From Rhizophagus irregularis (lineage: Eukaryota > Glomeromycota > Glomeromycetes > Glomerales > Glomeraceae): DNA of 64,000 nt. Shown piece by piece: positions 37,622 to 63,158 of the stretch. The stretch lies in assembly GCF_026210795.1 (NCBI RefSeq), contig NC_089431.1, positions 248,001-312,000 of the forward strand. The letters are read 5' to 3'. A program made the position numbers and the translations under genes. Positions within the stretch are counted from its first letter, which is position 1. Every line of letters starts with the position of its first letter. Below the pieces are notes generated by a model. That model had not been told where the DNA came from and ran no database searches. It saw only the letters and a program-made list of their open reading frames with translations.

Positions 37622-37631
37622 TATATAAAAG
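37622..37631 (+). promoter_or_regulatory. TATA box of receptor A
   Basis: TATATAAAAG lies 113 bases before the start codon. The same word precedes all four intact receptor genes at about 80-115 bases. Confidence 0.6.
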
Positions 37632-37743: not shown

Positions 37744-39342
37744 ATGTATCTACATTCATCTTCGATTCATATCATTATTTTTATCTCATCATTTCTTTTT
37801 TTTATGATACCTTTAAATAATGCTCAGGAGCATTCATCCTATGGTTATGGTGCTGAAACCGATTTTTACATTATTGTTACTATTCCATTATTAGTTAATA
37901 TCTTTAGTTTTTTAGGAAGTTTATATATTTTTTATCGTAAGTAATTTGATTTATTTGAAATTAATTTTCGAATGAAATCAATTAATATTTTTTGATTTTT
38001 AGGAACATTTGTACGATGGAAAAATGATCGTAGAAATATTTCTTTATCATTTAGATTTCCATTTTATATATCAATCACAGGTAAATATAATTTCAATTGT
38101 TTTGTATAAATTTATAATAAAAATTTTAAATAATTTTTTTTCTTTTTTTTTAGATTTTGTATATTCTTCATGCATCTTAATGGAGTTTGTAAGTAATTAA
38201 TAAAAAATTTTTTAAAAAAATTATCACGTTAAATACATTTTAAAACTAATATCATCAATTTATATACAGACATATGTGACGTTTAGTAAATCAGAATTCG
38301 TAAATAATAAAGAGTCTGTCACATGGCCATATCTATTCTGTGAAATTATTGGATTAGGCTTTACGTTTATTGTTCTGTTAAATATTTTATTGGTAAATTT
38401 TCTTTAAATTTTGTATTATTTTTATATGTATTATTTTACTCTTGATGAACCAACCATGCATAAATTTTCGTTAATAGGTTGGAGCTATATCCATTGTAAC
38501 TTGGTTAAGAGTAGTTCGAGAACATTATTTAGATTTGGGAAGATATGATTACAAAGTTTGGCTTCCAATCCTTTTCGTATCATCAATTATCCCTCTTAGT
38601 ACAGTATACGCCCATGGTTCTCGGGGTTATTCGTACGTTACATTTAATATTACATCACAATCATTACGCTTCACAGTGAACGTAACTTGATATATTTATA
38701 TACACACTATTTGTTTTACTAGGTGCGGGACTAAAATTGGATATCAAATTGTTGGATTCATTGTTCTTGCTATAATACTCGTTACATTAACAACTATCAT
38801 AATTTGCTACGCATCTGTAATGAGAGCGATTCGTAAAATTAAAGAAGTTAATGAATCCATTACAAATTCGCATAATAATTTGATCCAAATTAACAGTGTT
38901 GAAAGAAAAACCTTTAAAAAAATTTTAACTTACATCTTAGTCTTCATTTTACAATACGTACCTATTATGATTTATAACGTTTGTGGATTTTTAAAGGTAA
39001 AAAGATAAATGGATATTTGAAATAATTATGATGTTATATTCAATAGTTATATTTAATACAATGATTTGATTTTTTATTTATAGGTTCGCCACGTTATACT
39101 TGACGCTCTTATCCCAGCAGGTACAGTAATTTGAATTTATTAATATATAATTATATTAAAAAGTATCCCATTCTAAAATTATTTATTTTTTTATTTTTTT
39201 AGTTATAAGTTTAGGAGGAATAGGAAATATAATCCAATTTTTATATAATGAAGGATTATCAGCTAATAAATATACTTCAAATTATAAACTTGAATCGAAT
39301 GAGCAATCACAGAAATCAAATAATACAATGAGCGAACTTTAA
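37744..39342 (+). CDS. 7-transmembrane receptor-like protein A
   Basis: Eight exons: 37744-37936, 38003-38080, 38154-38188, 38270-38392, 38478-38632, 38723-38996, 39084-39120, 39203-39342; 344 aa. A signal peptide (IIIFISSFLFFMIPLNNAQ, about 10-28) and a short ectodomain precede seven hydrophobic helices: FYIIVTIPLLVNIFSF, FPFYISITDFVYSS, LFCEIIGLGFTFIVLL, VWLPILFVSSIIPLS, GYQIVGFIVLAIILV, LTYILVFILQYVPIMIYN and LIPAVISLGGIGN. A Cys at the start of helix 3 (PYLFCEI) and one in the loop before helix 5 (GYSCGTK) could form the GPCR disulphide. Loop 3 and the tail are polar and Ser/Asn-rich. The topology fits a G-protein-coupled receptor of the plasma membrane; ligand and G protein are unknown. 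Start fixed by the signal peptide and TATA spacing. First of four collinear paralogues. Confidence 0.85.
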
Positions 39343-41339
39343 TTTTAAAAGAATTAATTTAATTTAATTTAAATAATTATTTTTTTTTTATTATACGAGT
39401 TTGATTTTTTTTTTAAGATTTAATATTTACTTAACACTAGTATGATTAAGAATGTTGAATACAAATATATGTATAATTTGTATATATTGGTTTGTTAATT
39501 AATAATAAATTTATGAATACAAATATATGTATAATTTGACATAATTTACTTGCAATATGACGAATTTGACGACATTAACTCAGAATAAGTCATCAACAAC
39601 TATCATAAAATCTCGCCCACTTCCCGCTACCATTCAAAATCCTGACAATCAGACAAATCATAATCTCGAAAATTCTAATCCAGACACTCATTATTCCGAC
39701 ACTTATCATCTTTATTTTTTTAATTTTACATTAATAATTTTTTTTTTAGACATAATAATTTTGTAATACTTTGTAATAATTAATATTTTTATTGATATGT
39801 AATGATATTAGAATGTTTCGCAAGAATAAATTTTAATTTGTTATTTAATTAATTAGAAAAATACTAATAAAATTTCTTAAAATATTGATTAAAATTTTAT
39901 AATAAATAAATTTTAAAAATTTTGAATTCATAAGAATATTAATATCAGGATAATGATTGTCGGGATTTTGGGATGTCGGGATAATGATTGTCGGGATTTT
40001 TGATTTTCGGGATTATGATTTGTCAGTGTGATCGTCTGGTTTTTATTATAAATCTTCTGTATTTCAATAATAAGTTCTCGCTTATTACCTTTGGAATGTT
40101 TTCTGATAAATTTTTAAAAGACTAATATAATTTGTAAAATTATTATAGAACATACTGTTTTATTCTTTAAGGTTTTGGTTTGTTACCTAAACTAAGTCCA
40201 ATAAATAAATGATCATCCTGACTATTTGCGCATTAAATATGCATCTATGCAGTTGTTTGTTTTTTATATTAAAAAAACAAATTATAATAAAGGAGAAATA
40301 TTACACAAATATAATAAATCCCCTGTAAATAAATATGTACCAAATTATTAATTTTTTTCTAGAAATTTTGAAAATAGTAACCCCACTTAAAAAAGGGGAA
40401 TAAATGTTCTCGCGATTTTTTATTATTTATTATTTATTATTATTAGTATTATTAAAAATATTAAAAAAGAAAATAAATAAATAAATAAATAAAAAATAAA
40501 ATTAACTTTTATTAGACGGAACTTATCTAACCTTACTATTGTAATATATATGATATACGGAAGTAAAAAAAATAAAATAAAATGGTTTAATTTCTATCCG
40601 TAAATAAACTTAGTAAGCAGGAAGAACAATATAAAGGATTAAATAAGAAGATATTTTCCTAAATTATCGGAATTATTCGGGGGTAGGGATACAAAAGCTA
40701 AATTAGCAGATATTTTTTTTTAAAATTGTCGGGATTATTCGGGGGTAGGGATGCAATGGTGATATTATGGAATTAATCTAATTTATTTAATAATTATCTT
40801 CGTGTTTGAAATGACATTTTATGGTAAATTTAAATAAGAAAAAATATGCCAAGACGATTACTAGACTAATTTGGAATTCATTAAAAATTAGATAGAAAAA
40901 GATAATGGTTGTTTTCTTTTTTTATTTATTTTGTGTTAATAGATAAATGTTACATAATGCAAAGTTAAGTTTCAAGATAAGTTCATTATAATTCAAAAAA
41001 AAAAACACATAAAAATCTAAAAATAGTTAATAAAAATAATTGTACAAATTATTTAGATTTTTTCTTCAGGTTATTTGTATCGATTGATTATGCACATTCT
41101 CAAAAAGAGTAGGAAGAGAAGGGAGATGTTTGAAAAAAAGTGTGGTAATTATAAATTTCAATGAAATAAAAATTAAAACAATTATGTAATTGAGGATATT
41201 GGTATATAAGAAGAATGACAAAAAGAATGTAAAAGAATGAGTTCTTAAAATCTCTCATCCGCTTACTCAAAATTCGTCACGAGCACGTGTTGCGAAACTA
41301 ACATGTTTATAATAATGAACTCTAATCTCATTAAAATTC
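39343..41339. other. Intergenic between receptor A and the next unit
   Basis: Contains the CCCGAC element (39640-40030) and a short direct repeat of AATACAAATATATGTATAAT at about 39459 and 39516. From about 40590 it resembles the far-upstream blocks of receptor genes C and D. No gene is seen. Confidence 0.45.
39640..40030. mobile_element. MITE-like element with GACAAATCATAATC arms
   Basis: Arms of about 50 bp are inverted copies. The left begins GACAAATCATAATCTCGAAA (39653) and the right, read inward, GACAAATCATAATCCCGAAA (about 40025). Each is followed by CCCGACA/TCCGACA and ATTATCCCGAC words. The interior is non-coding AT-rich DNA. A target duplication was not resolved. Confidence 0.6.
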
Positions 41340-41482
41340 GGTATCGGGTCATTCGCCGAAAGCCATTTCGCCGAAAGGACGTTTCGCCGAAAAATAGGAC
41401 CAACATTATGCAGAATTATAAATAACTCAGGCCAAAGATTATTTTTCGGCGAAACGTCCTTTCGGCGAAATGACCCGATACC
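41340..41482. mobile_element. Foldback MITE with TTTCGCCGAAA modules
   Basis: Left arm (41340-41397) starts GGTATCGGGTCATTCGCCGA, and the right arm (41441-41482) is its reverse complement apart from a partial extra module on the left. Arms are built of repeated TTTCGCCGAAA palindromes around GGACG. The loop is only about 40 bp, so single strands would form a long hairpin. GC content is far above the surroundings. Confidence 0.8.
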
Positions 41483-44400
41483 TGCTCGAATACCACTTTC
41501 ATCAATAAACAATAATTAAAATTTACTAATCTTAAAAATCTTTTAATACCTCACCAAGTTAGATTCCGCATTGAAAAAAAATAATTTGTTTCGTTTTCTA
41601 GCAATCCATTATAATCGTAAATTATTTTTAAATGCATTTCACATTAAGATCATTGCGTATGGAATATTTTTCTGTATCTTTATTATAATTGGATAAATTT
41701 TGAAAAAAGTATATAGCACAAAGATAGGCAGTTCTGTAGATATACTATATGGTCCGTGCCTATGAAAAGTTACTGCTGTACCACAAACTTTAAATTTTAT
41801 AATTTCGTTTTTATCAGCTGTAAAGATATGATTATAACAGATAACGTACCAGAATTAATAATCAGATTATTTAAATTTTCGTCCCCGTAATTTCCAGTAT
41901 TCTGCATCTTTATAAATTATCGCCTTCGTCATCATCAATTGACCATCACTTTGAAATTCAATATTGCCAAATAGCATTTATTTTTTCCTAGTCTACGAAA
42001 AAACTTTTCCGAAAAACCATGTACTTAATGATCAAATTTTCTATTTAATTCTTGACCGAAATTACCGAAATTTAACTTATCATTCATTAACTCTGACCAA
42101 ACTGATTTTCTTATATCTTTTTTTTAAATAAATTATATAAGATATTACATAATAATATAATTAAAGATTATCGTCATAAAATTTTGCAATTTAACTATCA
42201 TAAATTGGTTAACTTAAATCATTTTCATTCAAGCATTTCATATTCTTTTTAATACATTCCAATTTTTTATTTTGATATATGTATGTATATTTATATAAAA
42301 TTATAAAAATTTTCAAGATAGTCTCATTTTGAATAAGAGATCATCAAATTACTACAATATTATTACATGTAATAACAATCTAGATTTTTATAATTTTTTA
42401 CTTTGTATAATATTGTAAAATTTTAAATGTTTAAATATTGTTTCAATTATGCATTTATCGAAAATCAACCAAGTATGGTTACAAGGATGATCTAAATTAT
42501 AACACCAATTTTTTTTGTTTCATTAAATATTAAATCTTAAAATTATTAATATATTAATTAAATAATAATACTTGAATAATAAAGTTGTGACACATAACTC
42601 CGGTTCGGATCCTTATAATTCCGGGTCAGCATACATACCAACTTTCCGGGTTGTCGGGTTATTGGCAAGCATGTGACAATCATGACATTTAGTCAATCAA
42701 TTTTACATCCTTTAACTGAATATTTTTGATTGTAACAAAAAGTTGGGTTTTTTTCTATTTACCGATAACCCAACAATCCGGCAAGTTTGTCGACTACAAA
42801 TATCCAGTATATTATGGATTATCAGGCCCGGTCGGATTTAAATATGTCCAAATGTAGAAAGAGTATATCCGGGTCAAGATAATGAATACTATTAAAGGAG
42901 TATAACTCGAAATATATAAGTCAATCAATATTCACCTCCTTTCCAAAAAAATGTTCATAATGTTAATACACTTTCCTATTTCATATGAAAAAAAAACAAA
43001 ATAGTACTTTAAATTACTATAATAGAAGTAAAAAAAAAAAAAAAAGAGTTCACCAATTATTATTCGATAATCAAAATGGGATGCAAGCGGTCGAACTTCT
43101 CGAACGTATCACATTTGCACAATTTTGATTTGCCGTAATACGATTAATAACGATTGGTTCATATAATTTTACGAAATCATGTGACTATCTAGGCGGATTA
43201 GCCGGTAAATCCTTTGTTATTAAAGACATTTATTTGTGTTACGTATCGGACATATAGTTTATTTGATCAGCATGAAACGTTGAAACGAAAAGTTATAAAA
43301 CAATAGAATAAATTAATTAATAGATTCTTTTCTAAGTTAATAAAACTCGAAATTTTTCGGAAGGATGGTAATGCAAAAAGCCATATTAAGTAAGATTACT
43401 AAAATGTTTCAAGACCAATTATAATAATTATAATAATAGAAAAAAAAATCTCATGATTTTAATTTCCAATAAATTTAATCTTCTAATATTCTTTTCCTTA
43501 TTATGTTATACAAATCAAAAAATAAAAAGGGAAAGAAAAGAAAATAAACGAGAATGAAAAGAAAACATATTATTTAATTCGTCAAAGTTAATTTTTAGAT
43601 TATATTAATATGTAAACAAACAGTCTTATTATGTAAAAGAAAGAATAAATAATTACAAATTTTATTAATTATTTGTTGTATTAGATTTTATTTCACCTTT
43701 ATTCGATTTTTCGATTTATTAAAGTTTAGATAAATTTGCGTGAGGTGATGGATAGCGCGCGTCGCGTGACAGATGTCAATTTCGAATAATTTCTAAGAAA
43801 ACTATTTTATTTATACTCTAATTTTATAAGGAAACTTTGCGCTATACTGTAACTATTTGTATGTATTTTATTATTAATTCTAAGTCATATGCTCACTAGA
43901 AATATTTGTACGTATCCCCAAATAAATATTATTAATTCCAAGTCAAAATATTGCAGGTATCATTATTTAAAATTTATAATTATAATTAAATATTAAATCT
44001 ATCAGTCTTAATGTACTTGCACCTTGTTAGCTAAATAATCAATACGGTCAGATTCATATTGTGAAAATTACTTTAAAATCTGACGCAAATCGGCATCTGA
44101 AAAACTTTCATCCGCTTACTTGTTTTAAGTTTTATAAGTTTAAATTTCATCGTCCGTGCCATATCACGTGAGATGAATAGTTTAATTTCTATTGTTTTAT
44201 TGTTTTTCTCATTCCAGTTTTTTTTTAAAAAAAAATACTTGAATTTTATTAATATTCTCATAACAAACAGTAAAACAAGAAAATCTATTCTAAAATTAAA
44301 TATTAAAACTATTGGTGGATATATGATAGCTATTTATTGTATATCAATTAATTGTTATATTAAGACTTTATGCGTTGTGTATATCAAGTCGCCTTAAAAT

Positions 44401-45494: not shown

Positions 45495-45504
45495 TATATA
45501 AAAG
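45495..45504 (+). promoter_or_regulatory. TATA box of receptor B
   Basis: TATATAAAAG lies 81 bases before the start codon, after a T-run. Confidence 0.6.
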
Positions 45505-45584
45505 ACGTTCGCCCATCTTATTTATAAATATCATTAATAAGAATTTCAAAATTTCACATTCCTTTAAATTTTTAAAACAAAAAA

Positions 45585-47198
45585 ATGAATTCATTCTCAT
45601 TTTCGATTAAAAAAATCGTATTTATTTCGACATTTCTTTTTTCCATTATACCAATAAATAAAGCACAAAAAGTTGATCCAGATTATGGATATGGCGTTGA
45701 AACCGATTTTTATCTTGTGACTACTATCCCATTAATCTTCTCTGTCATTAGTTTTTTAGGAACTTTATATATCTTTTTTCGTAAGTAATAAGTAATTTTT
45801 TAATGATCTTTTAATCTATGATCAATTTTTAAAATTTAAATATATTTGATTTTTATTAAGGAATGTTCTTACGATGGAAACGTAGTAAGAGAAGTATTCC
45901 TTTGTCATTTAAATTCCCATTTTATATAGCGATTACAGGTAATTTTTTAAAATTGTTTTTTTTTTAATAACGATAATTTTTAGTATAATAATTATATGTA
46001 ATTCTTTTATATTTAAGATTTTCTATATTCTTCAGCCATCTTAATTGAGTTTGTAAGTAAATTATTAATAAATTTTTTTCTTATTTAGAAAAAAAAATGG
46101 TCAAATTAACCATGATTTTAATAACTAATTATTGTCGTAAATTTATTATATAAAGGCATATACAGCTTCAAATAAAACAGATTTCGTAAAAAATAATGAA
46201 ACTAACACATGGCCATATCTATTCTGTGAAATCCTTGGATTTTTAATAGTTTTTTTCGTTTTACTAAATATAATATTGGTAAGTTTTAATAATAAAGAAT
46301 TTAGTTTTTAAAATAAAAATTTGATTTTTAATAAAAACATAAACTATTTTTAATAATAGGTAGGAGCTATATCTATTGTAACTTGGTTACGAGTAGTACG
46401 AGAATATTACTTCGAATTTGGAAAATATGATTATAAAATTTGGCTTCCAATTATTTTCATATCATTAATCATCCCTCTAAGTACATTAAATGCCTACGGT
46501 TCTCGAGGATATTCGTATGTCACGTGCTATTTTTTTTTGTCATATTAATTATCACGCGATCAGCATTCATTTTTATTCTGTTTTTAATTAGATGTGGAAC
46601 TAAAATTGGATCCGATCTTGTAGGAATAGTGGTTTTTGTTCTAATAGTAGTTACATTGTTAACTATCATTTTTTGTTACGTACATGTATTAAAAACGATT
46701 CGCGATATTCAAGGACATATCCCAAATTCAAGTATTGAAGCAGTACGAAATTCTAATGTTGAAAGGAGAACTTTTAAAAAAGTTTTAACTTATATTTTAG
46801 TTTTTATTTTACAATACATTCCCATTTTGATTTATAACATTTCTATGATATTAAGGGTAAAAAAAAAAAAATTTTTTTATTTTTCAAGTAATTGTAATTA
46901 TATTACTATATTAATACAATGTTTTTGATTTATAGGCTCGACATATTATATTAGATGCTCTCAGTCCAGCAGGTAATTTATTTAAAAGATAGTATAAAAT
47001 ATGTAAATATTTCAAATTATTTATTAATATATATATATATATATATTCTTTTTAGTTATATGTATTGGCGGAATAGCGAACGTATTTCAATATTTACGTA
47101 ATGAAGGATTAAAATTTTCACATACTAGTAGTAATAATTCTTCAAGTTATAAACTTGAAGTGGAAGAAAGATCAGATGATACTACACAAGACGCTTAA
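45585..47198 (+). CDS. 7-transmembrane receptor-like protein B
   Basis: Eight exons: 45585-45780, 45861-45938, 46018-46052, 46156-46278, 46360-46514, 46592-46856, 46936-46972, 47056-47198; 343 aa. Same exon phases as receptor A. Signal peptide around ISTFLFSIIPINKAQ, seven hydrophobic helices, the Cys pair (PYLFCEI and the Cys of CGTKIG), a conserved TWLRVVREYYFE at the cytoplasmic end of helix 3, and KKVLTYILVFILQYIP in helix 6. The intracellular loop 3 differs most (IRDIQGHIPNSSIEA). The tail is Ser-rich then acidic (SSNNSSSYKLEVEERSDD). A and B share the WPYLFCEI motif and the loop sequence GSRGYS, which C and D lack, so two ectodomain types exist. Confidence 0.85.
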
Positions 47199-48260: not shown

Positions 48261-49365
48261 TTGAAACATTATTATGTAAAGTTATTAGATAAATTTCTCG
48301 CGAATTTTCTTGGCAATCAAAAAATATAAAAAGTAATATTTCAATCATTTCAAAAAATAAACAAAAAAAAGAAATGTAACACACGAAGTCCAATTTTTGG
48401 GTTCGCGATCGAATTACGTCCAATCGTCAGATGATAATTGAACTCACATCACATGAATATTACCTGAATCGCCTAAATCGTATAATATAATCATAATTTG
48501 ACCCCAATAATAATTTATAATTTTTAGGTAATATCAAATATCGATATATAAAGTAAATAGGCGTTTAAAAATTGAACTCAGTATCCCAAGTATGACGAAC
48601 TTTAATTTTGAGAATACAATGATTACAATGATTGTAAATTTATTTATAAATTTATGTATAATTTATGTATAAACATTATTGTGTTTAATTGATAAAATGT
48701 GGAATTTTTACCAAAGTTATATAATTTATTCTATATTTTTTTTTTATTTATTATAAGAAATAATTTGAGTGGTTGTTAAAATATTTTTTTTAAAAAAAAA
48801 TTTTTTTTAACAGGTTAATTCATATTATAAAAAAAAAAGAATAAAAGCGTAAGCGTATGTGTAACAACATTATGTCATGTAAATATTTTGTGTATGTAAT
48901 AATATATATAATCATTTAATGGTAATCCTGTGGTCCGTTACGTTATTTTTTTTTTTAGTACAGCATTTACTAATTTGTAAATTTCTGATAATCATCTACA
49001 AGCAATTCATATTTTTTTTAAACAAATACAATACGTCAATTTAAACAAGTTAATTTTATTACTTCATTTCCTTCTTCCTCATTTGTAATATCGTATATAA
49101 ACAAACTGAATTTTTTTAATTGGTTAACGATTACAATTAGGATCGTCGCAGATGGATCCACATGATTTACGAAAACATTTATCTGCTATCTGCTAACTGT
49201 TATTATTTATCTGCTATCTGTTATATGATCTCCAGAGAAATTGTATCACAAACTTTAATTCCCGAAATAACTATCATTATATCATTGTTAAAATGTTAGA
49301 AAACAAACATCACATAGTGAATAAAATAACAGTTTAATCACTTTCTTACGACACATACATGTATA

Positions 49366-50135
49366 TGATTCATTATTATTTATTTTCCGTTTTATATAAC
49401 AATTACAGGTTAAAATATGACAATTGTTTGGAGCGAAGCGACAAATTTGCGTTAATCCATACATTTTCCATTGACAGTATCTACCTAAATAATTTCGATT
49501 TTCTAAAATTTATCTGTTATGAAGTGCGATGAACTTTTAAAGATTCTTTTTCTTGTAAATACAATAACTAATAAACAATTGATATTAAGATTCCGTAAAT
49601 AATATCTATTCTTAAATTCTTGAAATTCTTTAATTTAATTTTCGATGATGCGTAAATAAACGTTACGAGAAGTTCAAGAACGCTATTTGACATTGTGAAA
49701 ATATACATAATTACAAAATTTAGCTTCCAATTATCATCAATTATTCAGTAAGCGTAAAAGTTGTTCGATCGTTACGCGTCACAATAAACATAACGTAATA
49801 TATTCATATACAGTACGTACTTTTATATGAGCCTAAAATTGATATAATACTGTCTAGTAATTATCACATTGTTAATTTAACGTGTTTTTTTATGTACATG
49901 TAATATTGGATACGATTTGTAATGTTAAAAAGAAAATTCATTCATTACAAACTCGCATAGTAATATTACACAACTTACCAATATTGAAAGAACTTTAAAA
50001 ACAGTTTCAAATCCTTTATTTTATAATAAATTATTATATGATTTATAACAACGTTCATGCATTTCTAAAATAAAAATCGTATTAGTATATTATACTTAAG
50101 TACTTAACGTTCTCATTCCGACGAGTAATTTGAAT
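49366..50135 (+). pseudogene. Decayed receptor gene upstream of receptor C
   Basis: Pieces in gene order match the intact receptors: the end of exon 2 (TTTTATATAACAATTACAG, 49391-49408, with GT following), exon 5 (VVRE-like AGAAGTTCAAGAACGCTAT and TTAGCTTCCAATTATCATC, about 49665-49740), exon 6 (from the ATTCATTACAAACTCGCATA region to the helix 6 codons, about 49930-50070) and exon 7 (AACGTTCTCATTCCGACGA with GT following, about 50108-50127). Exons 1, 3 and 4 are unreadable, and stops and frameshifts are many. Confidence 0.7.
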
Positions 50136-52045
50136 TTGTGAAAATTTACTTGCTATTACTAATGAAATTGTTTCGAATTGTATCTAGAATAATTTGATTA
50201 ATGCATTCAACATCATAAACATTTACAATTCTTGGAAAATTTTTTATCAAATATTTGCTTACCCTAAAATTTTATTATTATGAAATTAAATTACAAGATT
50301 ATGTAAATTCAATTTATCAGTATGAGATAATAAAATTATACTAATCGTAACAGGTAAAATATTCAAAAGTTTCGTAGTATATTAATGTATCATTACTAAA
50401 TCTGGTTGTTATGTTTTCATTAAATATTGTGTGTAATTTCTCACTTGATAACAAATAATTATTACATATTAAAAAATATTAATTATTTTATATTTACAAA
50501 TAATAATGCTATCTATTTTATTAGATTAAAAAGGGGAATTTATGCCCGAAATATTCGAATGGTAAGTTTTTTATAGTGATTTGCGGAATTCTGAAATACG
50601 TTTAAGGTTTATTATTTTGATTATTTTGATTATATTGGTCGGCTGAACTAAATAGGAAATCATCAAAAATAATCGCATTATTTTTATTATTTTTATTATA
50701 TGATTATTTTTATTGATTACAGAAAATTGCAATCCGCAATAAATAAAAAAAATTAATTGTACAGTAAATAGACGAGAATAAATGGTTACGTTTTTGCACG
50801 ATTTATTTTTCCCAAAGCTCTCAGAAATAAAAAAAAAATTATTTAAATTAATTATAATTTACGGCAATTATACGGAAATTACGTACGCTTATACTATTTA
50901 TGCCAAGAAAATGTACTAATTACTACCATTTAACTAAATGATTGAAATGTAACTCTTAACGAATCAAGTGAATAAGGAATTTGTAAATAACCTGAGACAA
51001 TAAATATTATAAATAATCTCGAAATTTACCGAAACCTTATTGCTGTGTACAATATAAATTAAAGTTATATCAATTATATCGCAAATATCGCAAATAAACC
51101 GTTTTAAATTCTTTTCCATAAATAAATTTATTAATAGAGCAAAAAAAAAAAATTCTGTAAAAATATGTGATATGCGACAAACTGTATATCATAGTTTAAA
51201 AAAACCAGTTTTTTATGTTTTATAAATTCACCATTATATGTAATCATTATTGGATGATCACAAAACAAAACCATTTATGCTTATTTGTTTATTTTGTGTC
51301 AATAAATAAAAGTAAAATAATCAGATTATTCAGATAAGTGATATAAATGAAAACGCCACACAAAAGTCTAGACCTTGTTTCGTAATAAGTACAAACTATT
51401 TAGAATATTCTTTTTTATTTTTTTCATCAATTTTATATGAAATTTCGCTTCGGCATATTTCATATATCACATACCTTGAATTTTAATTTCTGTATTTCAA
51501 TAAATATTATTATTTGTATCATTAATAATCTATATAATTAAAAAAAAAGTTTTATTTTTGCAAGATTTTCGAAATCTAATCTTTAATACAAGATTTTATC
51601 GGGGTTAATAAATTCCGTCAACGCAGGCACGTGAAGTAGAACTTACCAGAATAATTATACATATTAGTAAATGGAACATACCTTAATATCCCCCACCTAA
51701 CTATTTCATCACCTTTTTCTTTTTATTTATGCGTGATATTTGTTTTTAAATGTATTTTGTTTTGTTAGAACTCTCAATGATAAGATTAATACTCTAGATA
51801 TAATTGGATAAATTAAAATAAAAAAAATTCAATATTAGTACAAAAATAAACAAGACCCGTAGGGCCGTGCTTATGGAATGTTTGTATCAAAAAAATTGTA
51901 GCACAAATTTTATAAGTAATATGTTTGTTTTAATTATCTCATATAACATGTTATAATACATAATCAACCGTTTTATTTTCGCACAAATTATATAGTATTA
52001 TACAGCGTATATCATTTAATTTTTATTTTCAGTAGGAGTGCAAAC
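50136..52045. other. Upstream region of receptor C
   Basis: Non-coding and closely matched by 58961-60906. Conserved words include GCAGGCACGTGAAGTAGAAC (about 51620 and 60490) and the GACCCGTAGGGCCGTGCTTA stretch (about 51855 and 60718), candidate regulatory sequence. No open frame of interest. Confidence 0.5.
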
Positions 52046-52057
52046 TATATATAAAAG
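52046..52057 (+). promoter_or_regulatory. TATA box of receptor C
   Basis: TATATATAAAAG lies about 96 bases before the start codon, in a context identical to that before receptor D. Confidence 0.6.
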
Positions 52058-52152
52058 CTCCCAATCGTTTATCGTCATTATTACTTACACGTTATTAATT
52101 TTATAATCATATAATAATTTCAACATTCGCTTAATATTTTTATAGAAAAAAA

Positions 52153-53813
52153 ATGGATTTAATCCCAATTTTATTTCGTATCACTATTTTTATATTATCG
52201 TTTCTTTATATGATACCTTTAAATGAAGCTGCTCCAACACATTCGTCACCTTATGATGCTATAACCGAATTTCACATTGTGTTTGTTATTCCAATAACTT
52301 TTCATTCCACTAATATTTTAGGAACTTTATTTATCTTTTACCGTAAGTAATTTTATTAATCTAAAAAAAAAAATAGATTTTGAATTCAACCAATTAATAT
52401 TTTCTATAGGAACGTACTTACGATGGAAACGTGATCATAGAAGTATTGTATTATCACTTAGATTTCCATTTTATTTAGCAATTACAGGTAAGCAATCTCA
52501 ATTTATTTTCATCATGTTTTACTGTTTTAATTATTTATAATAATTATTATATATATATAATTATCTTTATATTATAAGATTTTCTTTATTCATCGTCAGA
52601 CCTAATCAATTATGTAAGTAAATTAGCAAAAATATTTATTAAGATTATATTAACTAAAATTTAAAAATAATCATTATCGTTATAGTCATTATTTAAAATA
52701 TTCATTATCGTTAATCTTATAGTCATATTCGGCTTCAAATAAATCAAAATTCTTAAATAATGAAGTCATCACTTTACCATCTCCATTATGTGAAATCATG
52801 GGATTTTCTATCGTATTATTCGTTTCTTTTAACGTGTTATTGGTAAGTTTTTTAAAAATTTGACCTTATAAAAACCCTCGACACATCATGTTTTTCGGAA
52901 TTACGTTTAATTTTTAAAAATCTTATCAATAGGTTGGAGCTATATCTATTATCACTTGGTTACGGGTAGTGCAAGAATACTATTTCGAATTAGGAAAATA
53001 TGATTACAAAATTTGGTTTCCAATTGTTATCTTATCATTAATTTTCCCTCTAAGTACGCTAAACGCCTATGGTCCTACAAAATACAAGTATGTCACACGT
53101 TAATCATGTCAGTCAAATGATCAACCGCGTGATATTCTTATACTTTTTTTTTTATTAGTTGTGGGGTTAAACCTGAAGCTAGTGCTATAATGAAAATATT
53201 TTTTATTCTAATAGTTCTCACATTAGCAACTATTTTGTTTTGTTACATACATATATTAACAAAGATTCGTAGAGTTAAAGAAGAAAATTCATCAGTCTCA
53301 AGTTCGAATAATAGTTGGATGTATCTTAACAATATTGAAAAAAAAACTCTTAAAAAAGTTTTAACTTATATTTTAGTATTCATATTACAATATGTTCCTG
53401 TTCTAATTTATAACATGTGTAGATTATTAAAGGTAAAGATAATGTCCTTTATTTATTTATTTTTATTTGTTTTTTATGAAATTGTTTATAACAATATAAT
53501 TTAAAAATAATTAGATTCAAAATTTTATAATTGGTGTTATCGTTTCTTCAGGTAATTTTTTTTTTAAAATATACATATATATATATATATATTTGTTTTA
53601 TATTGATCGATATTTAACAAAAAGTATTAATTCTATTTTTTTTTAGCTATATCTTTAGGAGGAATAGGTAACGTAATTCAATATATATGTAATGAAGGAT
53701 TTAGATATCAATCATCAAGCGTTACTTGTTCAGATTATAAATCCGAAACAAAAGCTGAAGCAGATGATGAACAGAAATCAAATGATGATTCAATTATTAC
53801 TAATAATGTATGA
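52153..53813 (+). CDS. 7-transmembrane receptor-like protein C
   Basis: Eight exons: 52153-52342, 52410-52487, 52579-52613, 52723-52842, 52933-53087, 53159-53432, 53515-53551, 53647-53813; 351 aa. Signal peptide (ITIFILSFLYMIPLNEAA), seven hydrophobic helices, helix-3 Cys in SPLCEIMG and loop Cys in NCGVKPEAS. Exon 4 is one codon shorter than in A and B and lacks the WPYLF motif. Exon 7 encodes IQNFIIGVIVSS instead of the VRHVILDALIPA type of A and B, so the entry to helix 7 is quite different. The tail is acidic (KAEADDEQKSNDDS). Very close to receptor D. The intron before exon 4 contains a local duplication of TTCATTATCGTTA. Confidence 0.85.
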
Positions 53814-54254
53814 TTGATTATTTGATAATATAAAATATGTAAAATTATTTTTTTATGTTTGTAAGAATTTTATTAAGTTTTAATATAATAATAAGTTCAA
53901 TGTAATAAGTATAAATTTATTTATAATGTATAAATTCGTATTAAATATAAATGTATAAAATTCGATTATACAGTTAAACGTAATGATTAAAGATGTTAAT
54001 TAAATAAATTATGTTATACAAATATTTATTGATTATGAAAATGAAAAAAATATTAAAATAAATATTATGATTTACACCAATCACTAAATTGATCGATATG
54101 AATACAAAAAAGGAAAAAGTCAAAATTAACTGGAAATGTATTATGTAGTTTGCCAAACATGAGATCGACAATTAAAATTTGTGTATAGTATGTATACGTA
54201 TACGTAATTACGTATCGTCACTTCTCGATACTTGGCCTGACGACCATCTCGCCA
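53814..54254. other. 3' flank of receptor C
   Basis: AT-rich and collinear with 62671-63380. Ends at the target duplication ATCTCGCCA (54246-54254). Confidence 0.5.
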
Positions 54255-54784
54255 GGACCCAGAAATATATATACAGGGGTAGGGTACACAAATGCGTCGC
54301 CATCATAGTGGAATTAGACGGAGTAAAGTTTTGATTTGCGTACAATTTTAGAATTTTTCATCTATAGTTAGGTCATCAAGATTGCGTATTTTTTATCAAA
54401 ATTTTTATATGTAAAAAATTAGTTTGCGTATTTTTGACCTAAATTTGGCTAATCTTATATATATAATATATTTACTGTAAGTACTTATTTAATTAACCGA
54501 ATTGTAAGAAATTTCTAAGGGTTAAAAAGTGAAATTTTAGAAAAATATTATAAAAAAATGGTAAATTCTATTTTTTCACATTAGTATTTTGTTTTATAAA
54601 TAATATAGAAGCCATGATAAAATAATTAATAACTTAATGTCTGAAATTTTATTTGCGTATTTTTGCAGGATTTTCAATATCAGGTGTCAATTATGCGTAC
54701 TACTCATATAAAAAGTCTCTGCGTACAGCTCATAGTAAAAAAATTTTTCGCCACCTGACCCCTATATATATATTTCTGGGTCCT
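54255..54784. mobile_element. 530-bp MITE with 9-bp target duplication (Mutator-like)
   Basis: Ends GGACCCAGAAATATATATA are exact inverted copies (left from 54255; right arm to 54783), followed inward by AGGGGT-like words. An exact 9-bp duplication ATCTCGCCA flanks it (54246-54254 and 54785-54793). The paralogous segment has the empty site ATCCCGCAAGTCCTGCC at 63381-63397. A 9-bp duplication fits the Mutator (MULE) group. No coding capacity. Confidence 0.85.
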
Positions 54785-54950
54785 ATCTCGCCAACCCTGC
54801 TACCCGCTGAACAGGGGCATTCATATAGAATTATTTTACCTTTGCAAAAACTGTGGAATAGCTAATTTAAAAAGTTGATTAAAAAAAGAGGTTACTTTTA
54901 GCATATGAGAAATTAACATTAAAAACAGATTTCTTCAGATTTTTTTTTTC

Positions 54951-56069
54951 TTTTTTTTTTAAAAAAAAATTAGCAACGCGTTTATTAATTTATTAATCAA
55001 TATATAGAAAAGATTACATAAACATTAAAACACTAAGAAAGCAAATTAAAAATTAATTTACTCTCTATAACTAAAGTATTCGAACAATACCTATATACTA
55101 AAAAACTATCTAATCTAATCTAAAATGTAAACTAAACTAATTTTGGTATTAAATTCCAACTTTTCGTATCTTTTCCTTCTGTGAACCTACCAATTATTTT
55201 ACTAATTTAATATCATTTTCTCTCTTTTTATATTTTTCGTTAATTTTTAATTATTTTCTTCGATTTCTATATTTTTATCTTCACTCTCTATATCTCTATC
55301 TTTAAATTTTCTAACTCTTTTATCTGATTTTTTAATACCTAAACTTTGTTCTAACTCGTTACTAACTTCATTACACCTTTTGATCTAAAATTCCTTCTTT
55401 AACGCGTTAAAACAAAACACCCAAAGCTCATTTATCAGTTCTTTCTCATCTTTATCTTTTGATACTTTATTAAATTTACCATTATAAACTCCTCTAATCA
55501 ATTCCCAATATTTATCTTTTCCGATCAGAACTTCTGATTTTTCATACAAAATCTTTAAAAAACTAAAATTCATGTTCTGTAATAATTTTACTTCCTCATG
55601 CTTTTCTTCATTCAATAAATGTTCTTCGAAATCACTAATCGAACGTTCTATAACTTCTTTAATCGTTAACTCGTTCTTTTCACAGATCCATAAATGATCC
55701 CAATTTTCAACTCCATTTTTACATCTAATACATTGATCTGTTTCTATCATATTCACATCTCTTTTGTACAATATCTCGTAGGTCGGCAATTCTTTTAAAA
55801 AATTTTTAATTTTATATGAACGTTCCCATACATCTTCTTTTTCGATTTCCCATGATGTACAGTTACTATTTCGATTACTAATAAATTGTAACGTTCTATT
55901 CCAATCAAATTCGCCTTTATGATTATAAAAAAACAAATCTTCCACCTTCCTACTGTTAAGCATTTCATTTTTCCAAATTAATTCAGAACATTTTTTACGC
56001 CACGCTCTAATGCCTCCAGGAATTAAATGTTTTTTCCAATATAGATTAAAATCGTCGAAAGACATTGCT
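54951..56069 (-). mobile_element. 5'-truncated LINE insertion
   Basis: Minus-strand LINE 3' part. Coding 56065-55385 gives 226 aa beginning MSFDDFNLYWKKHLIPGG and containing a zinc-knuckle-like C-x2-C-x8-H-x3-C (CIRCKNGVENWDHLWIC, about residues 137-153), typical of the region after the reverse transcriptase in this LINE group. The 3' UTR is 55384-54970, then a poly(A) tail (T-run on + strand). A 17-bp duplication flanks the insertion: TTCAGATTTTTTTTTTC at 54934-54950 and 56070-56086. The reverse transcriptase and endonuclease domains are missing: a typical dead-on-arrival copy. Copy D of the duplication has no LINE here (about 63444-63460). Frame intact, so the insertion is young. Confidence 0.85.
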
Positions 56070-56086
56070 TTCAGATTTTTTTTTTC

Positions 56087-57434
56087 AGTTTCATCAATTA
56101 AAACTAAAAATGATTATCAATTATGCCGAAAATAATCAAAGAATTTTTTTTTATCAAAATAAAATTTTACTTCGCATAGATTTTACTAATGTTAAATTAT
56201 TTTTTAAATTCAAATTATTAAAAATCCGAATCTGATGATAAAATGATCAGCAGTATACCAAACTTATACTAATTTTTTTATAGTGAATGTGTGATGACCA
56301 AAGATTTATTTTTGTTTAAAAAATGTGTTGTATAACTGAAAAAGAAAACCATAATAAAATTTTGTAAGTTCTGAGGAATTTGGGAAACTTTAGAAAATTT
56401 CAGAAAATCATAATTTAAATTAAAAACTCATAACGAACTTTTTTTCTTTAAATCAAAACCATTTATAATTAATTTTATCACTATATACCGACTTTATTAT
56501 AAATTTCGCGATATTACCGAAGTTTAATTATAAATCAGTCATATTTATTTATTCGCGATTAACTGATACCTTCTTAATTCCGGCCGGAATTAACTTAGTC
56601 TCGGCCGGCACTATTCAACGCAGCAGATCAGTCACCTGATATCTACGAGTCTTAAAAGTTTCCATTATATAGTATTGATACTATAAACATATTTTGACAA
56701 GATAAAATATCTGACATTACTTGATAATATATTTAAGTATACCGAATTTTTATATTTAAATCGGTATAATAAAAATATATTGATTTATCGAATATTTGAT
56801 ATAACGACCAAAAATCAGGACCTGAACGGAGGGTTCATATCGAGTTCTGATTGTAGATGTTTATCAAAATTTAGATTTTTTTAATAAAAGATGTGTTAAA
56901 AGTTGGAACGGCCCTACTGTACTATTCTTTTAAATATATTACTTGAAAAATACACCCGTGTTAATAAACACTCATAATATTTCCACTCCAAAAAAAAAAA
57001 TTCATTTCCAAATGTTTGAATAAATTAAAACACCTTATGGTTGAAATTAACTATAAGTAGTAGCGATAAGTCACATGAAATTCCTAACGTTAAGTTAATA
57101 AGTTATGTAAACGGAATGATTACATAAAATCTTGATCTTTTGATCTTTCATATAAAATATATATGTCCTGATACCGATTGTTATGCGTATAAGCGTATTT
57201 TTTTCCCTCAACATGATCATCTCTTACGATAATTTCGTAATGTAATCGTGCTATATTCCCATTTTTTATATCCAATTTGCTTATACGTTAATATACAGTA
57301 TATTTATTTATTTTATTCTTATTTTTATTTTTTTTCTCGAAATATTTTTCATGTTTAATTATTAATTTATTCAACATGTGGGATATTTTATGGATATTGT
57401 ACGGTGTTGTATTTATATTGATTAACGTCACGAA
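56087..57434. other. 3' end of copy C and spacer
   Basis: 56087-56560 is collinear with 63450-64000. A 20-bp palindrome centred on CCGG lies at 56574-56593. 56600-57434 is AT-rich, with no gene recognised. Confidence 0.45.
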
Positions 57435-58559
57435 TTGAAACATTATTATGTAAAGTTATTAGATAAATTTCTCGCGAATTTATCTTGGCAATCAAAAAAT
57501 ATAAAATAATTTCAAATTATACAAATCATTTTAAAAAATAAACAAAAAAAAGAAATGTAACACACAAAGTCCAATTTTTGGGAACGTGATCGAGTTGCGT
57601 TCAGTCGTCAAATGATAATTGACTCGCGTCACCTGAATATTGTCTGAATCTCCTGAATCGTATAATATAATCATAATTTGACCCAATAACGATATTATCT
57701 TGTGACCCATTTTATGGACTTTAGCTTAATTATAGCTTAATTATAGATTATTTTTGATTTTTAAGAATAACAAAATTATCGGCAATTATGTTTAATATAC
57801 GGAGCACGATAATAATTTATAATTTTAGGTAATATCAACATATAAAGCAAATAGGCGTTAAAATTGGCCCAGTATCCCAGTATGACGAACTTTAATTTTT
57901 GGGAATACAATGATTACAATGATCGTAAATTTATGTATAATTTATGTATAAATATTATTGTGTTTAATTGAATTTTACCAAAGTAATATAATTATTCTAT
58001 ATTTATTATATGAGTGGTTGTTAAAATATTTTTTTTAAAAAAATTTTTTTTACAGGTTATAAAAAAGAAATAAAAGTGTAACATTATGTCATGTAAATTA
58101 TTTGTATATGTAATAATATATAATCATTTAATGGTAATCCTGTGATCCGTTACGATTTTTTTTTTAGTATCAGGCGATGCAGGCGTGCAGCATTTACTAA
58201 TTTTGTAAATTTCTGGTAATCATTTACAAGCAATTCCCATTTTTTTAAACAAATACAATACGCCAATTTAAACAAGTTAATTTTATTACTTCATTTCCTT
58301 CTTCCTCATTTGTAATATCGTATACCGTAATATGATTTTTAGTAAACAAACCTGAATTTTTTTAATTGGTTAACGATTACAATTAGGATCGTCGCAGATG
58401 GATCCACATGATTTACGAAAACATTTATCTGCTATCTGCTAACTGTTATTATTTATCTGCTATCTGTTATATGATCTCCAGATTAGAAATTGTATCACAA
58501 ACTTTAAATCCCGAACTAACTATCATTATCTCATTGTTAAATGTTAGAAACATAGTGAA

Positions 58560-58960
58560 TATATATGATTTATATAACAATTACAGGTTAAATATGATTT
58601 AAATGTAAAGATAGTAATTGTCTGAGCGAATCAACAAATTTGCGTTAATCCATACATTTTCCATTTATCTACCTGATATAATACTGTCTAGTAATTATTT
58701 CATTGTTAATTTAACGTGTTTTTAATGTACATGTAATATTGGATACGATTTGTAATGTTAAAAAGAAAATTCATTCATTACAAATTCGCATAGTAATATT
58801 GTGCAGCTTACCAATTGAAAGAACTTTAAAAACAGTTTCAAATCCTTTTACTTTAGAAATGATGAACGTTATGTAAATCATATAATAATTTATTATAAAA
58901 TAAAGTACATTTTTCGACGTGGTAGTATATTGTACTTAACGTTCTCATTCCGACCGACAT
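58560..58960 (+). pseudogene. Decayed receptor gene upstream of receptor D
   Basis: Duplicate of the pseudogene at 49366-50135, reduced further. The exon 2 end (TTATATAACAATTACAG, then GT, about 58569-58587), exon 6 (about 58740-58850) and the exon 7 region (AACGTTCTCATTCCGACCG, about 58938-58957) remain; the exon 5 relic seen in the other copy is deleted. Confidence 0.65.
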
Positions 58961-60906
58961 TCGATGAAATTGTTTCATTAATGCATTCAGCATCATAAAC
59001 ATTTACAATTCTTGGAAAATTTTTTATCGAATATTTGCTTATCCTAAAATTTTATTGTTATTATTAAATTAAATTACAAGATTATGTAACTATATGTATA
59101 AAAATTAAATTTGTTAATATGAAATAATAAAATTATACTAACGTAACAGTAGTTTCGTAGTATATTAATGTATCTTTACTAAATCTGATTGTTATGTTTT
59201 CATTAAATATTGTGTATCTATCTGTGTAATTTCTCACTTATTTTGTAAAAAAACAAATAATTATTACATATTAAAATATTAATTATTTTTTAATTTTTCC
59301 AAATAATAATGTTATGTATTTTATTAGATTAAAAAGGGGGAATTTATGTCACCCGATTCTGCTAGTAGTAATACCCGAATGGTAAGTTTTTATAGCGGTT
59401 TGCAGAATTCTGAAATACGTTTAAGGTTTATTATTTTGGTCAACTGACTGAACGAAATAGAAAATCATCAAAAATAATCGCATTATTTTTATTATTTTAC
59501 TACATGATTATTTTTATTAATTACAGAATATTGCAATCCGTAATAAATTAAAATGTAATTTGGTACAGTAAATGGACGAGAATAAATGATTACGCTTGCG
59601 CGATTTATTTTTCCCAATGTTCACAAAAAAAAATATATTTATATTAATTATAATTTACGAAATTATATTTCTCTTTTAATGGGAATTACGTACGCTTATA
59701 CTATTTATGCCAAGAAAATGTACTAATTACTACCATTTAACTAAATGATTGAAATGTGACTCTTAACGAATCAAGAGAATAAGGAATTTGTAAATAACCT
59801 GAGACAGTAAATATTATAAATAATCTCGAAATTTACCGAAACCTTATTGTTGTGTACAATATAATTAGTAAAGTTATATCAGTTATATCGCAAATACCGC
59901 AAATAGAACGTTTTAAGTTCTTTTCCATAAATGAATTTATTAATAGAGCAAAAAAAAAATTCTGTAAAAATACTAAATAATTCCAAAATTATCAAAATTT
60001 TTTAGGGGAAGGGACGTAAAATCTAACATATTTTAAATGTCTATGCAACAAAGTACTGTATATCATAGTTTAAAAAAAAACAGTTTTTTTTATGTTTTTA
60101 TAAATTCACCATTATATGTAATTATCATTGGATGATCACAAAGAAAAACCATTTTTGCTTAAATTTTATTTATTTGTTTATTTTGTGTCAATAAATAAGA
60201 GTAAAATAATTAGATAAGTGATATAAATGAAAACGCCACACAAAAAGTCTAGACCTTGTTTCGTAATAAGTACAAACTATTTAGAATTTTCTATTCAAAT
60301 TTATTTGAAATTTCGCTTCGGCATATTTCATATATCACATACCTTAAATTTTAATTTTTGTATTCAATAAATATTATTATTTGTATCATTAATAATAAAG
60401 TTGAAAAAAAAATAGTTTTATTTTTGCAAGATTTTCGAAATCTAATCTTTAATACAAGATTTTATCGGGGTTAATAAATTCCGTCAACGCAGGCACGTGA
60501 AGTAGAACTTACCAGAATAATTATATATATTAGTAAATGGAACATACCTTGATATCCCCCGCCTAACTATTTCATCACCTTTTTCTTTTTATTTATGCGT
60601 GATATTTGTTTTTAAATGTATTTTGTTTTGTTGGAACTCTCAATAATAAGATTAACACTCTGGATATAATTGGATAAATTAAAATAAAAAAATTCAATAT
60701 TAGTACAAAAATAAACAAGACCCGTAGGGCCGTGCTTATGCAATGCTTGTATCAAAGAAATTGCAGCACAAGTTTTATAAATAATATGTTTGTTTTAATT
60801 ATCTCATTAACATGTTATGATATATAATCATGACCGTTTTATTTTCGCACAAATTATTATTATACGGCAGATATCATTTAACTTTATTTTCGGTAGGAGT
60901 GCAAAC
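58961..60906. other. Upstream region of receptor D
   Basis: Non-coding and nearly identical in long stretches to 50136-52045, with small indels. No gene. Confidence 0.5.
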
Positions 60907-60918
60907 TATATATAAAAG
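60907..60918 (+). promoter_or_regulatory. TATA box of receptor D
   Basis: TATATATAAAAG lies about 95 bases before the start codon. Confidence 0.6.
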
Positions 60919-61012
60919 CTCCCAATCGTTTATCGTCATTATTACTTACACGTTATTAATTTTATAATCATATAATAATTCAACATTCGCTTAATATTTT
61001 TATAGAAAAAAA

Positions 61013-62670
61013 ATGGATTTAATCCCATTTTTATTTCGTATCACTATTTTTATATTATCGTTTCTTTATATGATACCTTTAAATGAAGCTGCTCCAACAC
61101 ATTCGTCACCTTATGATGCTATAACCGAATTTCACATTGTGTTTGTTATTCCAATAACTTTTCATTCCATTAATATTTTAGGAACTTTATTTATCTTTTA
61201 CCGTAAGTAATTTTATTAATCTAAAAAAAATTGATTTTTGAATTCAATCAATTAATATTTTCTATCTTTAGGAACGTACTTACGATGGAAACTTGATCAT
61301 AGAGGTATTATATTATCACTTAGATTTCCATTTTATTTAGCAATTACAGGTAAGCATTCTCAATTTATTTTTTCATGTTTTACTGTTTTAATTATTTATA
61401 ATAATTATTATATATATATAATTATCCTCATATTATAAGATTTTCTTTATTCATCAGCAAGCTTAATTAATTATGTAAGTAAATTAGTAAAATATTCATT
61501 ATCGTTATAGTCATTAGTTAAAAATATTCATTATCGTTAATCTTATAGTCATATTCGGCTTCAAATAAATCAAAATTCTTAAATAATGAAGTCATCTCTT
61601 TACCATCTCCATTATGTGAAATCATGGGATTTTCTGTCGTATTATTCGTTTCTTTTAACATGTTATTGGTAAGTTTTTTAAAAATTTGACCTTATAAAAA
61701 CCCTCGATCGACATACAGTATCATGTTTTTCGGAATTACGTTTAATTTTTAAAAATCTTATCAATAGGTTGGAGCTATATCTATTACCACTTGGTTAAGG
61801 GTAGTGCAAGAATACTATTTCGAATTAGGAAAATATGATTACAAAATTTGGTTTCCAATTGTTATCTTATCATTAATTTTCCCTCTAAGTACGCTAAACG
61901 CCTATGGTTCTACAAAATACAAGTATGTCATTACGTTAATCACTTAAACCATGTAATCAGTCAAATGATCAACCACGTGATGTTCATACACTTTTTTTTT
62001 TATTAGTTGCGCGACTAAACCTGAAGCTAGTGCTGTAATGACAATATTTTTTATTCTAATAGTTCTCATATTAGCAACTATTGTGTTTTGTTACGTACAT
62101 ATATTAATAACGATTCATAGAGTTAAAGAAGAAAATTCATCAGTCTCAAGTTCGAATAATAGTTGGATGTATCTTAACAATATTGAAAAAAAAACTCTTA
62201 AAAAAGTTTTAACTTATATTTTAATATTCATATTACAATATGTTCCTGTTCTAATTTATAACATGTGTAGAATCTTAAAGGTAAAGAAAATATTTTATTT
62301 ATTTTTTTATTCATGATTTTTTATGAAATTGTTTGTAACAATATAATTTAAAAATAATTAGATTCAAAATTTTATAATTGGTGTTATCGTATCTTCAGGT
62401 AATTTTTAAATACAGTAAAAATATATATATATATATATTTGTTTATGTATTGATCGATATTTAACAAAAGTATTAATCCTATTTTTTTGTTTAGTTATAT
62501 GTTTAGGAGGAATAGGTAACGTAATTCAATATATGTGTAATGAAGGATTTAGATATCAATCATCAGGCAATGTTTATTCAGATTATAAATCTGAAACAAA
62601 ATCTGAAGCAGATGAAGCAGTTGATGAACAGAAATCAAATGATGATTCAATTATTACTAATAATGTATGA
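61013..62670 (+). CDS. 7-transmembrane receptor-like protein D
   Basis: Eight exons: 61013-61202, 61272-61349, 61440-61474, 61549-61668, 61768-61922, 62007-62280, 62362-62398, 62495-62670; 354 aa. Near-duplicate of receptor C. Exon 1 differs at only two residues (IPFLFR for IPILFR, FHSINI for FHSTNI). Replacements elsewhere are scattered: ASLINY for SDLINY, CATKPEAS for CGVKPEAS, TIHRVKEE for KIRRVKEE. The tail has three extra residues (EADEAVDEQ). All eight exons are open and all splice sites canonical, so both copies appear functional. Same signal peptide, seven helices and Cys pair as receptor C. Confidence 0.85.
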
Positions 62671-63150: not shown

Positions 63151-63158
63151 AAATTAAC

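What the first reader, a model, noticed from the sequence alone, without database searches (positions are those of the whole stretch)
37744..62670. Tandem array of a 7-TM receptor-like family
Four intact, two decayed and one gene-less unit of the same eight-exon gene lie in 25 kb, all on one strand, each with a signal peptide, seven helices, a GPCR-like Cys pair and a TATATAAAAG box. Divergence is concentrated in the extracellular loops (WPYLF against LPSPL, GSRGYSCGTKIG against PTKYNCGVKPEAS), loop 3, the helix 7 entry and the tail, as expected for a receptor set diversifying in ligand. This may be a lineage-specific chemosensory family.
Basis: partly seen in the sequence, partly recalled or inferred. 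Interest (0 to 1): 0.75.

Follow-up and report, generated by a model that had tools for sequence, protein, structure and literature searches.

The report
Tandem fungal rhodopsin-like receptor genes
Four intact copies of one gene lie side by side in a fungal genome, and they encode seven-helix cell-surface receptors shaped like the animal rhodopsin-type family, part of a larger set of such genes that could sense outside chemicals, although no ligand is known.

Summary
Four intact eight-exon genes (344, 343, 351, 354 aa) lie on the + strand at 37744-62670, each with TATATAAAAG 90-122 nt upstream, plus two decayed copies. The 'gene-less unit' rests on one weak match. Evidence points to a divergent rhodopsin-like (class A) GPCR. 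Pfam 7tm_1 is over cut-off in 3 of 4. A 10-member profile matches 42 distinct PDB sequences at E<=0.1, all class A GPCRs. The better AlphaFold model of B (pLDDT 76) matches class A receptors, Foldseek E 3.9e-8, Z 25.1. The Cys pair and Tyr5.58 are kept in 23 of 23 aligned members; DRY is absent in 23 of 23. The genome holds 19 further modelled relatives with shared introns, and G-alpha and RGS genes. Older copies evolve under constraint; the youngest pair keeps its frame with dN about equal to dS. Ligand diversification and chemosensory function are not shown. Rhodopsin-like GPCRs of early-diverging fungi are known (class XV); this is a divergent, locally expanded variant.

The parts
37744..39342 (+). 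Gene A, 344 aa; exons 37744-37936, 38003-38080, 38154-38188, 38270-38392, 38478-38632, 38723-38996, 39084-39120, 39203-39342
   Evidence: Spliced model, open frame, GT-AG introns; 60% identical to B; no 7tm_1 match
45585..47198 (+). Gene B, 343 aa; exons 45585-45780, 45861-45938, 46018-46052, 46156-46278, 46360-46514, 46592-46856, 46936-46972, 47056-47198
   Evidence: Pfam 7tm_1 34.3 bits, cut-off 30.5; AlphaFold model pLDDT 76.3
52153..53813 (+). Gene C, 351 aa; exons 52153-52342, 52410-52487, 52579-52613, 52723-52842, 52933-53087, 53159-53432, 53515-53551, 53647-53813
   Evidence: 7tm_1 34.2 bits
61013..62670 (+). Gene D, 354 aa; exons 61013-61202, 61272-61349, 61440-61474, 61549-61668, 61768-61922, 62007-62280, 62362-62398, 62495-62670
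   Evidence: 7tm_1 35.4 bits; 91% protein identity to C
37622..37631 (+). TATATAAAAG, 122 nt before the ATG of A
45495..45504 (+). TATATAAAAG, 90 nt before the ATG of B
52048..52057 (+). TATATAAAAG, 105 nt before the ATG of C
60909..60918 (+). TATATAAAAG, 104 nt before the ATG of D
49369..50076 (+). Decayed copy 1: remnants of exons 2, 5 and 6 in order
   Evidence: BLAST matches to A, B, C and D, best E 1.2e-14
58569..58838 (+). Decayed copy 2: exon 6 remnant 58746-58838; 58569-58682 matches decayed copy 1
   Evidence: 74% to A exon 6, E 2.7e-10
48352..56551 (+). First copy of a duplicated block (decayed copy 1, gene C, 3' flank)
   Evidence: Matches 57533 to the window edge in successive pieces, about 8.8-9.2 kb away in the gene-bearing part
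57533..64000 (+). Second copy of the duplicated block (decayed copy 2, gene D, 3' flank), reaching the window edge
40918..41057 (+). Possible gene-less unit: sequence like that upstream of gene C, without a gene
   Evidence: 70.7% to 51281-51404, E 5.6e-7; weak

Best explanation
The array encodes plasma-membrane rhodopsin-like (class A-type) G-protein-coupled receptors: signal peptide, short extracellular N-terminus, seven helices, a TM3-ECL2 Cys pair with a beta-hairpin in ECL2, a TM6 FxxQ[WY]xP switch and an Nxxx[YF] motif late in TM7. An outside chemical ligand most likely binds in the helix bundle, moves TM6, and activates one of the genome's G-alpha proteins. Tandem and segmental duplication makes copies; some stay intact, some decay. 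Shown: gene structure, duplication, decay, wider family, motifs, presence of G-alpha and RGS genes. Predicted: fold (one protein, B). Inferred: surface location, ligand binding, G-protein coupling. Unknown: ligand and role.
For: Gene models. Pfam 7tm_1 over cut-off in B, C and D; in all 9 of 22 members scanned match 7tm_1 at the E limits used. Ten-member profile against PDB: 42 distinct sequences at E<=0.1, all class A GPCRs, best GPR21 at 2.5e-6. AlphaFold of B: pLDDT 76.3, pTM 0.75, seven helices, ECL2 hairpin. Foldseek best E 3.9e-8, 50 of the 50 rows listed class A receptors. VIA-align best Z 25.1 (rmsd 3.4, 273 residues); of 50 entries listed 48 are class A and 2 Frizzled. In 23 aligned members: TM3 Cys 23, ECL2 Cys 23, Tyr5.58 23, TM2 Asp 20, TM6 Pro 21, TM6 Trp/Tyr 21, TM7 Asn 19, Tyr/Phe7.53 23. 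Five of B's seven introns are shared by 13-18 of 23, the other two by 7 and 8. G-alpha at five clear loci, RGS at ten.
Against: DRY is absent in 23 of 23: the aligned place reads xT[YWF] in 20, and Arg lies three residues later in 21. No Pro follows the TM7 Asn position in any of 23. In B the place eight before Tyr5.58 is Thr, not Pro (read from the sequence; not tallied in the others). Gene A and 12 other members of the 22 scanned have no 7tm_1 match. The exon-by-exon 7tm_1 scan of the genome put only 1 of 6 matches over the cut-off, and a control, B. subtilis, rang below the cut-off. The first structure model was poor (pLDDT 49.9), with Foldseek best E 2e-3 and class B1 receptors among its rows. 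With only the four window proteins the PDB profile search gave best E 0.036. C/D show no detectable constraint on amino-acid changes. No expression, ligand or coupling data.
Confidence: 0.82

Rival explanations
1. A rhodopsin-like fold that no longer couples to G proteins in the usual way, and signals through another partner or acts as a decoy or scaffold.
For: No DRY in 23 of 23, Arg displaced by three residues, no Pro after the TM7 Asn.
Against: Tyr5.58, the TM6 motif and Tyr/Phe7.53 are conserved; the genome has G-alpha and RGS genes.
Confidence: 0.12
2. The youngest copies (C, D) are drifting and the array is mostly neutral gene birth and death, without sensory diversification.
For: Two decayed copies beside them; C/D dN 0.046, dS 0.034; substitutions in exons 4.2%, introns 4.8%.
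Against: C/D exons have 1 indel, of 9 nt, in 1056 aligned nt, against 19 in 559 intron nt (p 1.9e-8) and 44 in 1764 upstream nt; runs of A and T in introns inflate the contrast. The five older pairs have dN/dS 0.38-0.71.
Confidence: 0.25
3. A seven-helix transporter or other non-receptor membrane protein.
For: Weak Pfam hits of single members to unrelated families, the best Cation_ATPase_C at E 0.0039 and DHHC at 0.0069.
Against: The unrelated hits lie below their cut-offs (one search gives no cut-offs); sequence profile and fold searches point to class A GPCRs.
Confidence: 0.02

Closest known systems
Fungal GPCR class XV, rhodopsin-like (Pfam 7tm_1), Liu et al. 2025, PMC12842992 (passages seen)
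   Same: 7tm_1 matches, seven helices, fungal setting; the paper surveys 1357 species and reports 984 rhodopsin-class sequences, mostly early-diverging fungi
   Different: 13 of 22 members scanned here have no 7tm_1 match and would escape a Pfam-based census. The main text has 0 occurrences of 'glomero' or 'rhizophagus'; its supplements were not read, so the species may be in its tables
Rhodopsin-family receptors of chytrids and Blastocladiomycota, Krishnan et al. 2012, PMC3251606 (passages seen)
   Same: Asp in TM2, Cys in ECL1 and ECL2
   Different: Those carry D/ERY in TM3 and NP in TM7; these carry neither
7tm_1 expansion in Entomophthora muscae, PMC11105155 (passages seen)
   Same: Expansion of 7tm_1 genes in one early-diverging fungus (99 genes reported)
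   Different: Counted there among light-sensitive domains; here no member has Lys at the aligned retinal place (22 with a residue, 1 gap)
Animal class A receptors (orexin, opioid, somatostatin, prostaglandin, glycoprotein hormone)
   Same: Top fold matches; ECL2 beta-hairpin
   Different: 11-20% identity in the rows listed; no DRY, no NPxxY Pro
Fungal cAMP-receptor-like and Git3 receptors
   Same: Seven-helix receptors
   Different: No Pfam match in any of 22 members scanned; Git3 rings once in this genome, at another place (C3:5730126)

Membership tests
Rhodopsin / class A GPCR | Seven-helix bundle with class A arrangement | tested here: met
   Predicted model of B, pLDDT 76.3; Foldseek E 3.9e-8; Z 25.1, rmsd 3.4 over 273 residues. 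A, C, D not modelled
Rhodopsin / class A GPCR | Cys3.25 - ECL2 Cys pair | tested here: met
   23 of 23 at both places
Rhodopsin / class A GPCR | Asp2.50 in TM2 | tested here: met
   20 of 23 D, 2 E, 1 G
Rhodopsin / class A GPCR | D/E-R-Y at the end of TM3 | tested here: not met
   0 of 23; xT[YWF] in 20 of 23, Arg three residues on in 21 of 23 (register from the alignment)
Rhodopsin / class A GPCR | CWxP in TM6 | tested here: inconclusive
   Q[WY]xP form: P 21 of 23, W 11 and Y 10 of 23, Q in place of C 22 of 23
Rhodopsin / class A GPCR | NPxxY in TM7 | tested here: not met
   N 19 of 23 and Y or F 23 of 23, but no Pro in 23 of 23 (V 6, A 4, L 3, I 2, F 2, S 2, T 2, M 1, G 1)
Rhodopsin / class A GPCR | Couples to a heterotrimeric G protein | not testable with these tools
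   Only the presence of G-alpha and RGS genes was seen
Fungal GPCR class XV | Pfam 7tm_1 match | tested here: met
   B, C and D over cut-off; A has none; 9 of 22 family members match
Fungal GPCR class XV | Seven helices with outside N-terminus | tested here: met
   Seven helices in the model of B; more K+R in the inside loops in A-D; topology not measured
Opsin | Lys at the retinal site in TM7 | tested here: not met
   S, N, C, T or P in 22 of 23, gap in one; no Lys (rows printed)
cAMP receptor-like, Git3, Ste3, PAQR | Match to the family's Pfam model | tested here: not met
   No such match for 22 members (limit E<=1, E<=0.1)

The most novel reading that the evidence does not exclude
A fungal family of rhodopsin-fold receptors in which the DRY arginine has moved about one helical turn along TM3, giving a different G-protein coupling lock, and which has expanded as the chemical-sensing repertoire of a root-symbiotic fungus, including receptors for plant or soil cues.
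Probability: 0.15. Interest if true: 0.8.

Novelty: new variant of a known kind. Interest (0 to 1): 0.45.

Why it matters
The rhodopsin-like class of fungal GPCRs is listed as uncharacterised (PMC13308352, passages). If the genome is an arbuscular mycorrhizal fungus, as its size and base composition suggest, the receptors by which such fungi sense plant signals are an open question: the fungal strigolactone receptor is called unknown in PMC9306968 (start of abstract in the listing; that paper itself studies a D14-like hydrolase in another fungus, a rival to any GPCR). A set of 23 modelled genes gives a short list for expression studies and assays in laboratory cells. The loss of DRY with a conserved Arg three residues on is a natural test of what rhodopsin-fold signalling requires.

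Tried and rejected
A transporter or other fold: set aside. Opsin (light sensing): no retinal Lys. Dicty_CAR in G000 gave nothing, but nothing rang in the controls either, so absence is not shown. Viral contigs: 120 stretches matched a pattern, none confirmed as a relative; phage records: no match. The first AlphaFold model, from three sequences, was too poor to use. The PDB profile search with the four window proteins alone gave 9 sequences, best E 0.036. Diversifying selection was sought and not shown. The hydropathy scan did not settle the helix number. A fetch of 100 bases of an E. coli record had no purpose and was not used. tRNA scan of the window: none.

Papers: the listings showed no title on this array (one search listed 20 of 92 papers, one search listed 15 of 2,278); one search found no paper with its three terms. 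I saw passages of six papers, plus one section part of PMC12716839. PMC12716839 sampled a Rhizophagus irregularis proteome and lists fungal rhodopsin-like receptors in a supplement that I did not read, so some members may already be listed there. PMC12387763 (Conidiobolus, 23 uses of GPCR) was not opened.
Full report
Setting. The window is C3:248001-312000 of a genome of 146.7 Mb in 32 contigs, with 23-31% GC per 4-kb block. This fits the arbuscular mycorrhizal fungus Rhizophagus irregularis, but that name is recalled; no call gave it.

Observation. I rebuilt the four genes from splice sites and open frames: A, B, C and D, eight exons each, 343-354 aa, all introns GT-AG and 66-109 nt. A spliced-alignment script given protein B alone returned the inner exon borders of C. 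37744 and 62670 are the first base of gene A and the last base of gene D. The repeat search shows four copies in register; C and D are the recent pair, with several blocks at 97-99% and others at 90-94%. Self-BLAST shows a duplicated block from 48352 to about 56551, found again from 57533 to the window edge, each copy holding one decayed and one intact gene. Decayed copy 1 keeps parts of exons 2, 5 and 6; decayed copy 2 part of exon 6. A reversed-sequence control gave 0 hits. The gene-less unit rests on one match of E 5.6e-7. Four of the window's 11 + strand TATATAAAA sites continue with G, and these four are upstream of the four genes.

What the protein is. Pfam 7tm_1 passes its cut-off in B, C and D, not in A. 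Over three of the 23 modelled members were scanned (L023 was not), and 9 match 7tm_1 at limits of E 1 or 0.1. One search reports counts only; its best 7tm_1 E is 9.4e-13, and it also lists single weak hits, one of them to V1R (E 0.038), another GPCR model. A profile of ten members matched 42 distinct PDB sequences at E<=0.1, every one a class A GPCR or a construct of one. AlphaFold of B with nine sequences gave pLDDT 76.3 and pTM 0.75: a signal-peptide helix, seven helices and a beta-hairpin in ECL2; the tail is of low confidence. Foldseek: best E 3.9e-8, all 50 rows listed are class A. VIA-align on Foldseek's top 1000: best Z 25.1, 48 of 50 entries listed class A, two Frizzled.

Motifs. In 23 aligned members: TM3 Cys and ECL2 Cys 23 of 23; Tyr5.58 23; TM2 Asp 20; Asn 14 residues after the TM3 Cys 22; TM6 Phe 19, Gln 22, Trp or Tyr 21, Pro 21; TM7 Asn 19 and Tyr or Phe 23. 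The GPCR numbers are mine, set by the alignment and by recall of class A numbering. The DRY site reads xT[YWF] in 20 of 23 (LSY, FIY and INW in the rest), and Arg lies three residues later in 21 of 23. No member has the NPxxY Pro or the retinal Lys. So these proteins look, and most likely work, like class A receptors, while two class A motifs (DRY and the NPxxY Pro) were tested and not met; I call them a divergent rhodopsin-like variant rather than plain members.

Family. Searches with B and three paralogs led to 21 places outside the array that I fetched, and to one more, C18:2862629, not fetched. Of the 21, 19 gave usable models; L022 is decayed and L027 a fragment. Of the 19, 10 have no start codon found by the script, one has no stop, and some hold doubtful short exons. 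Introns 2, 3, 5, 6 and 7 of B are shared in place and phase by 18, 18, 17, 15 and 13 of 23, introns 1 and 4 by 8 and 7, which supports common descent. The tree puts A with L008, on another contig (support 99/97), and C with D (100/100), so copies both stay and move. The matches on C3 between 285756 and 310622 all lie in the window, so no further intact copy was seen next to it. L007 has nearly its whole core in one exon. The family search with 7tm_1 itself found only 6 exon matches, one over the cut-off with its neighbours.

Selection. Nei-Gojobori counts give dN/dS 0.38-0.71 for five older pairs and 1.35 for C/D, from 36.5 nonsynonymous and 7.5 synonymous changes, not different from neutral (p 0.71 on rounded counts). 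Yet C/D exons hold 1 indel of 9 nt in 1056 nt, introns 19 in 559 (p 1.9e-8), the upstream region 44 in 1764. Variable positions are commoner in extracellular loops (34/44) and ICL3 (20/25) than in helices (95/168), uncorrected p 0.015 and 0.029; the tail (17/23) does not differ significantly. To my knowledge this pattern is usual for GPCR families and is no proof of ligand diversification.

Signalling context. G-alpha matches lie at five clear loci and one weak one (Thermotoga rang below cut-off as a control); RGS at ten; one separate Git3 match at C3:5730126. These show that partners exist, not that they couple to this family.

Literature. Fungal rhodopsin-like GPCRs are known: Krishnan 2012 (PMC3251606, passages), Liu 2025 class XV (PMC12842992, passages), a 2026 review that lists class XV as uncharacterised (PMC13308352, passages), and 99 7tm_1 genes in Entomophthora muscae (PMC11105155, passages). 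PMC12716839 (section 10 part 1, and passages) sampled R. irregularis among others. PMC8401276 (passages) proposes that AM fungi may sense plant signals through GPCRs and Gpa3. No listing showed a title on this array; the lists of 35 and 66 were capped.

Verdict.

Noticed in passing
54917-56085: About 1.2 kb present in the first duplicated block and absent at the matching site of the second (63443-63445); carries a 226-aa minus-strand ORF at 55385-56065 that resembles the tail of a retroelement protein (recalled resemblance, not searched).
   Followed up: partly
6231-7701, 17836-18666, 26799-27617: Three similar protein-kinase-like ORFs or ORF pairs on the + strand in the left half of the window, another apparent tandem family (kinase identity read by eye, not searched).
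   Followed up: no
41340-41490: Inverted repeat built on TTTCGCCGAAA-type sequence between genes A and B, seen by eye.
   Followed up: no
L007 (G000:C10:5040000-5042300): A distant paralog with nearly the whole seven-helix core in one exon, as if introns had been lost.
   Followed up: partly
L018/L019, L020/L021, L015/L016: Three further pairs of family members lie about 4-12 kb apart; the first two pairs on the same strand, the third on opposite strands. Local duplication recurs in this family.
   Followed up: partly
L022 and L027: A decayed paralog with internal stops, and a fragment holding only the 5' part of a gene.
   Followed up: no
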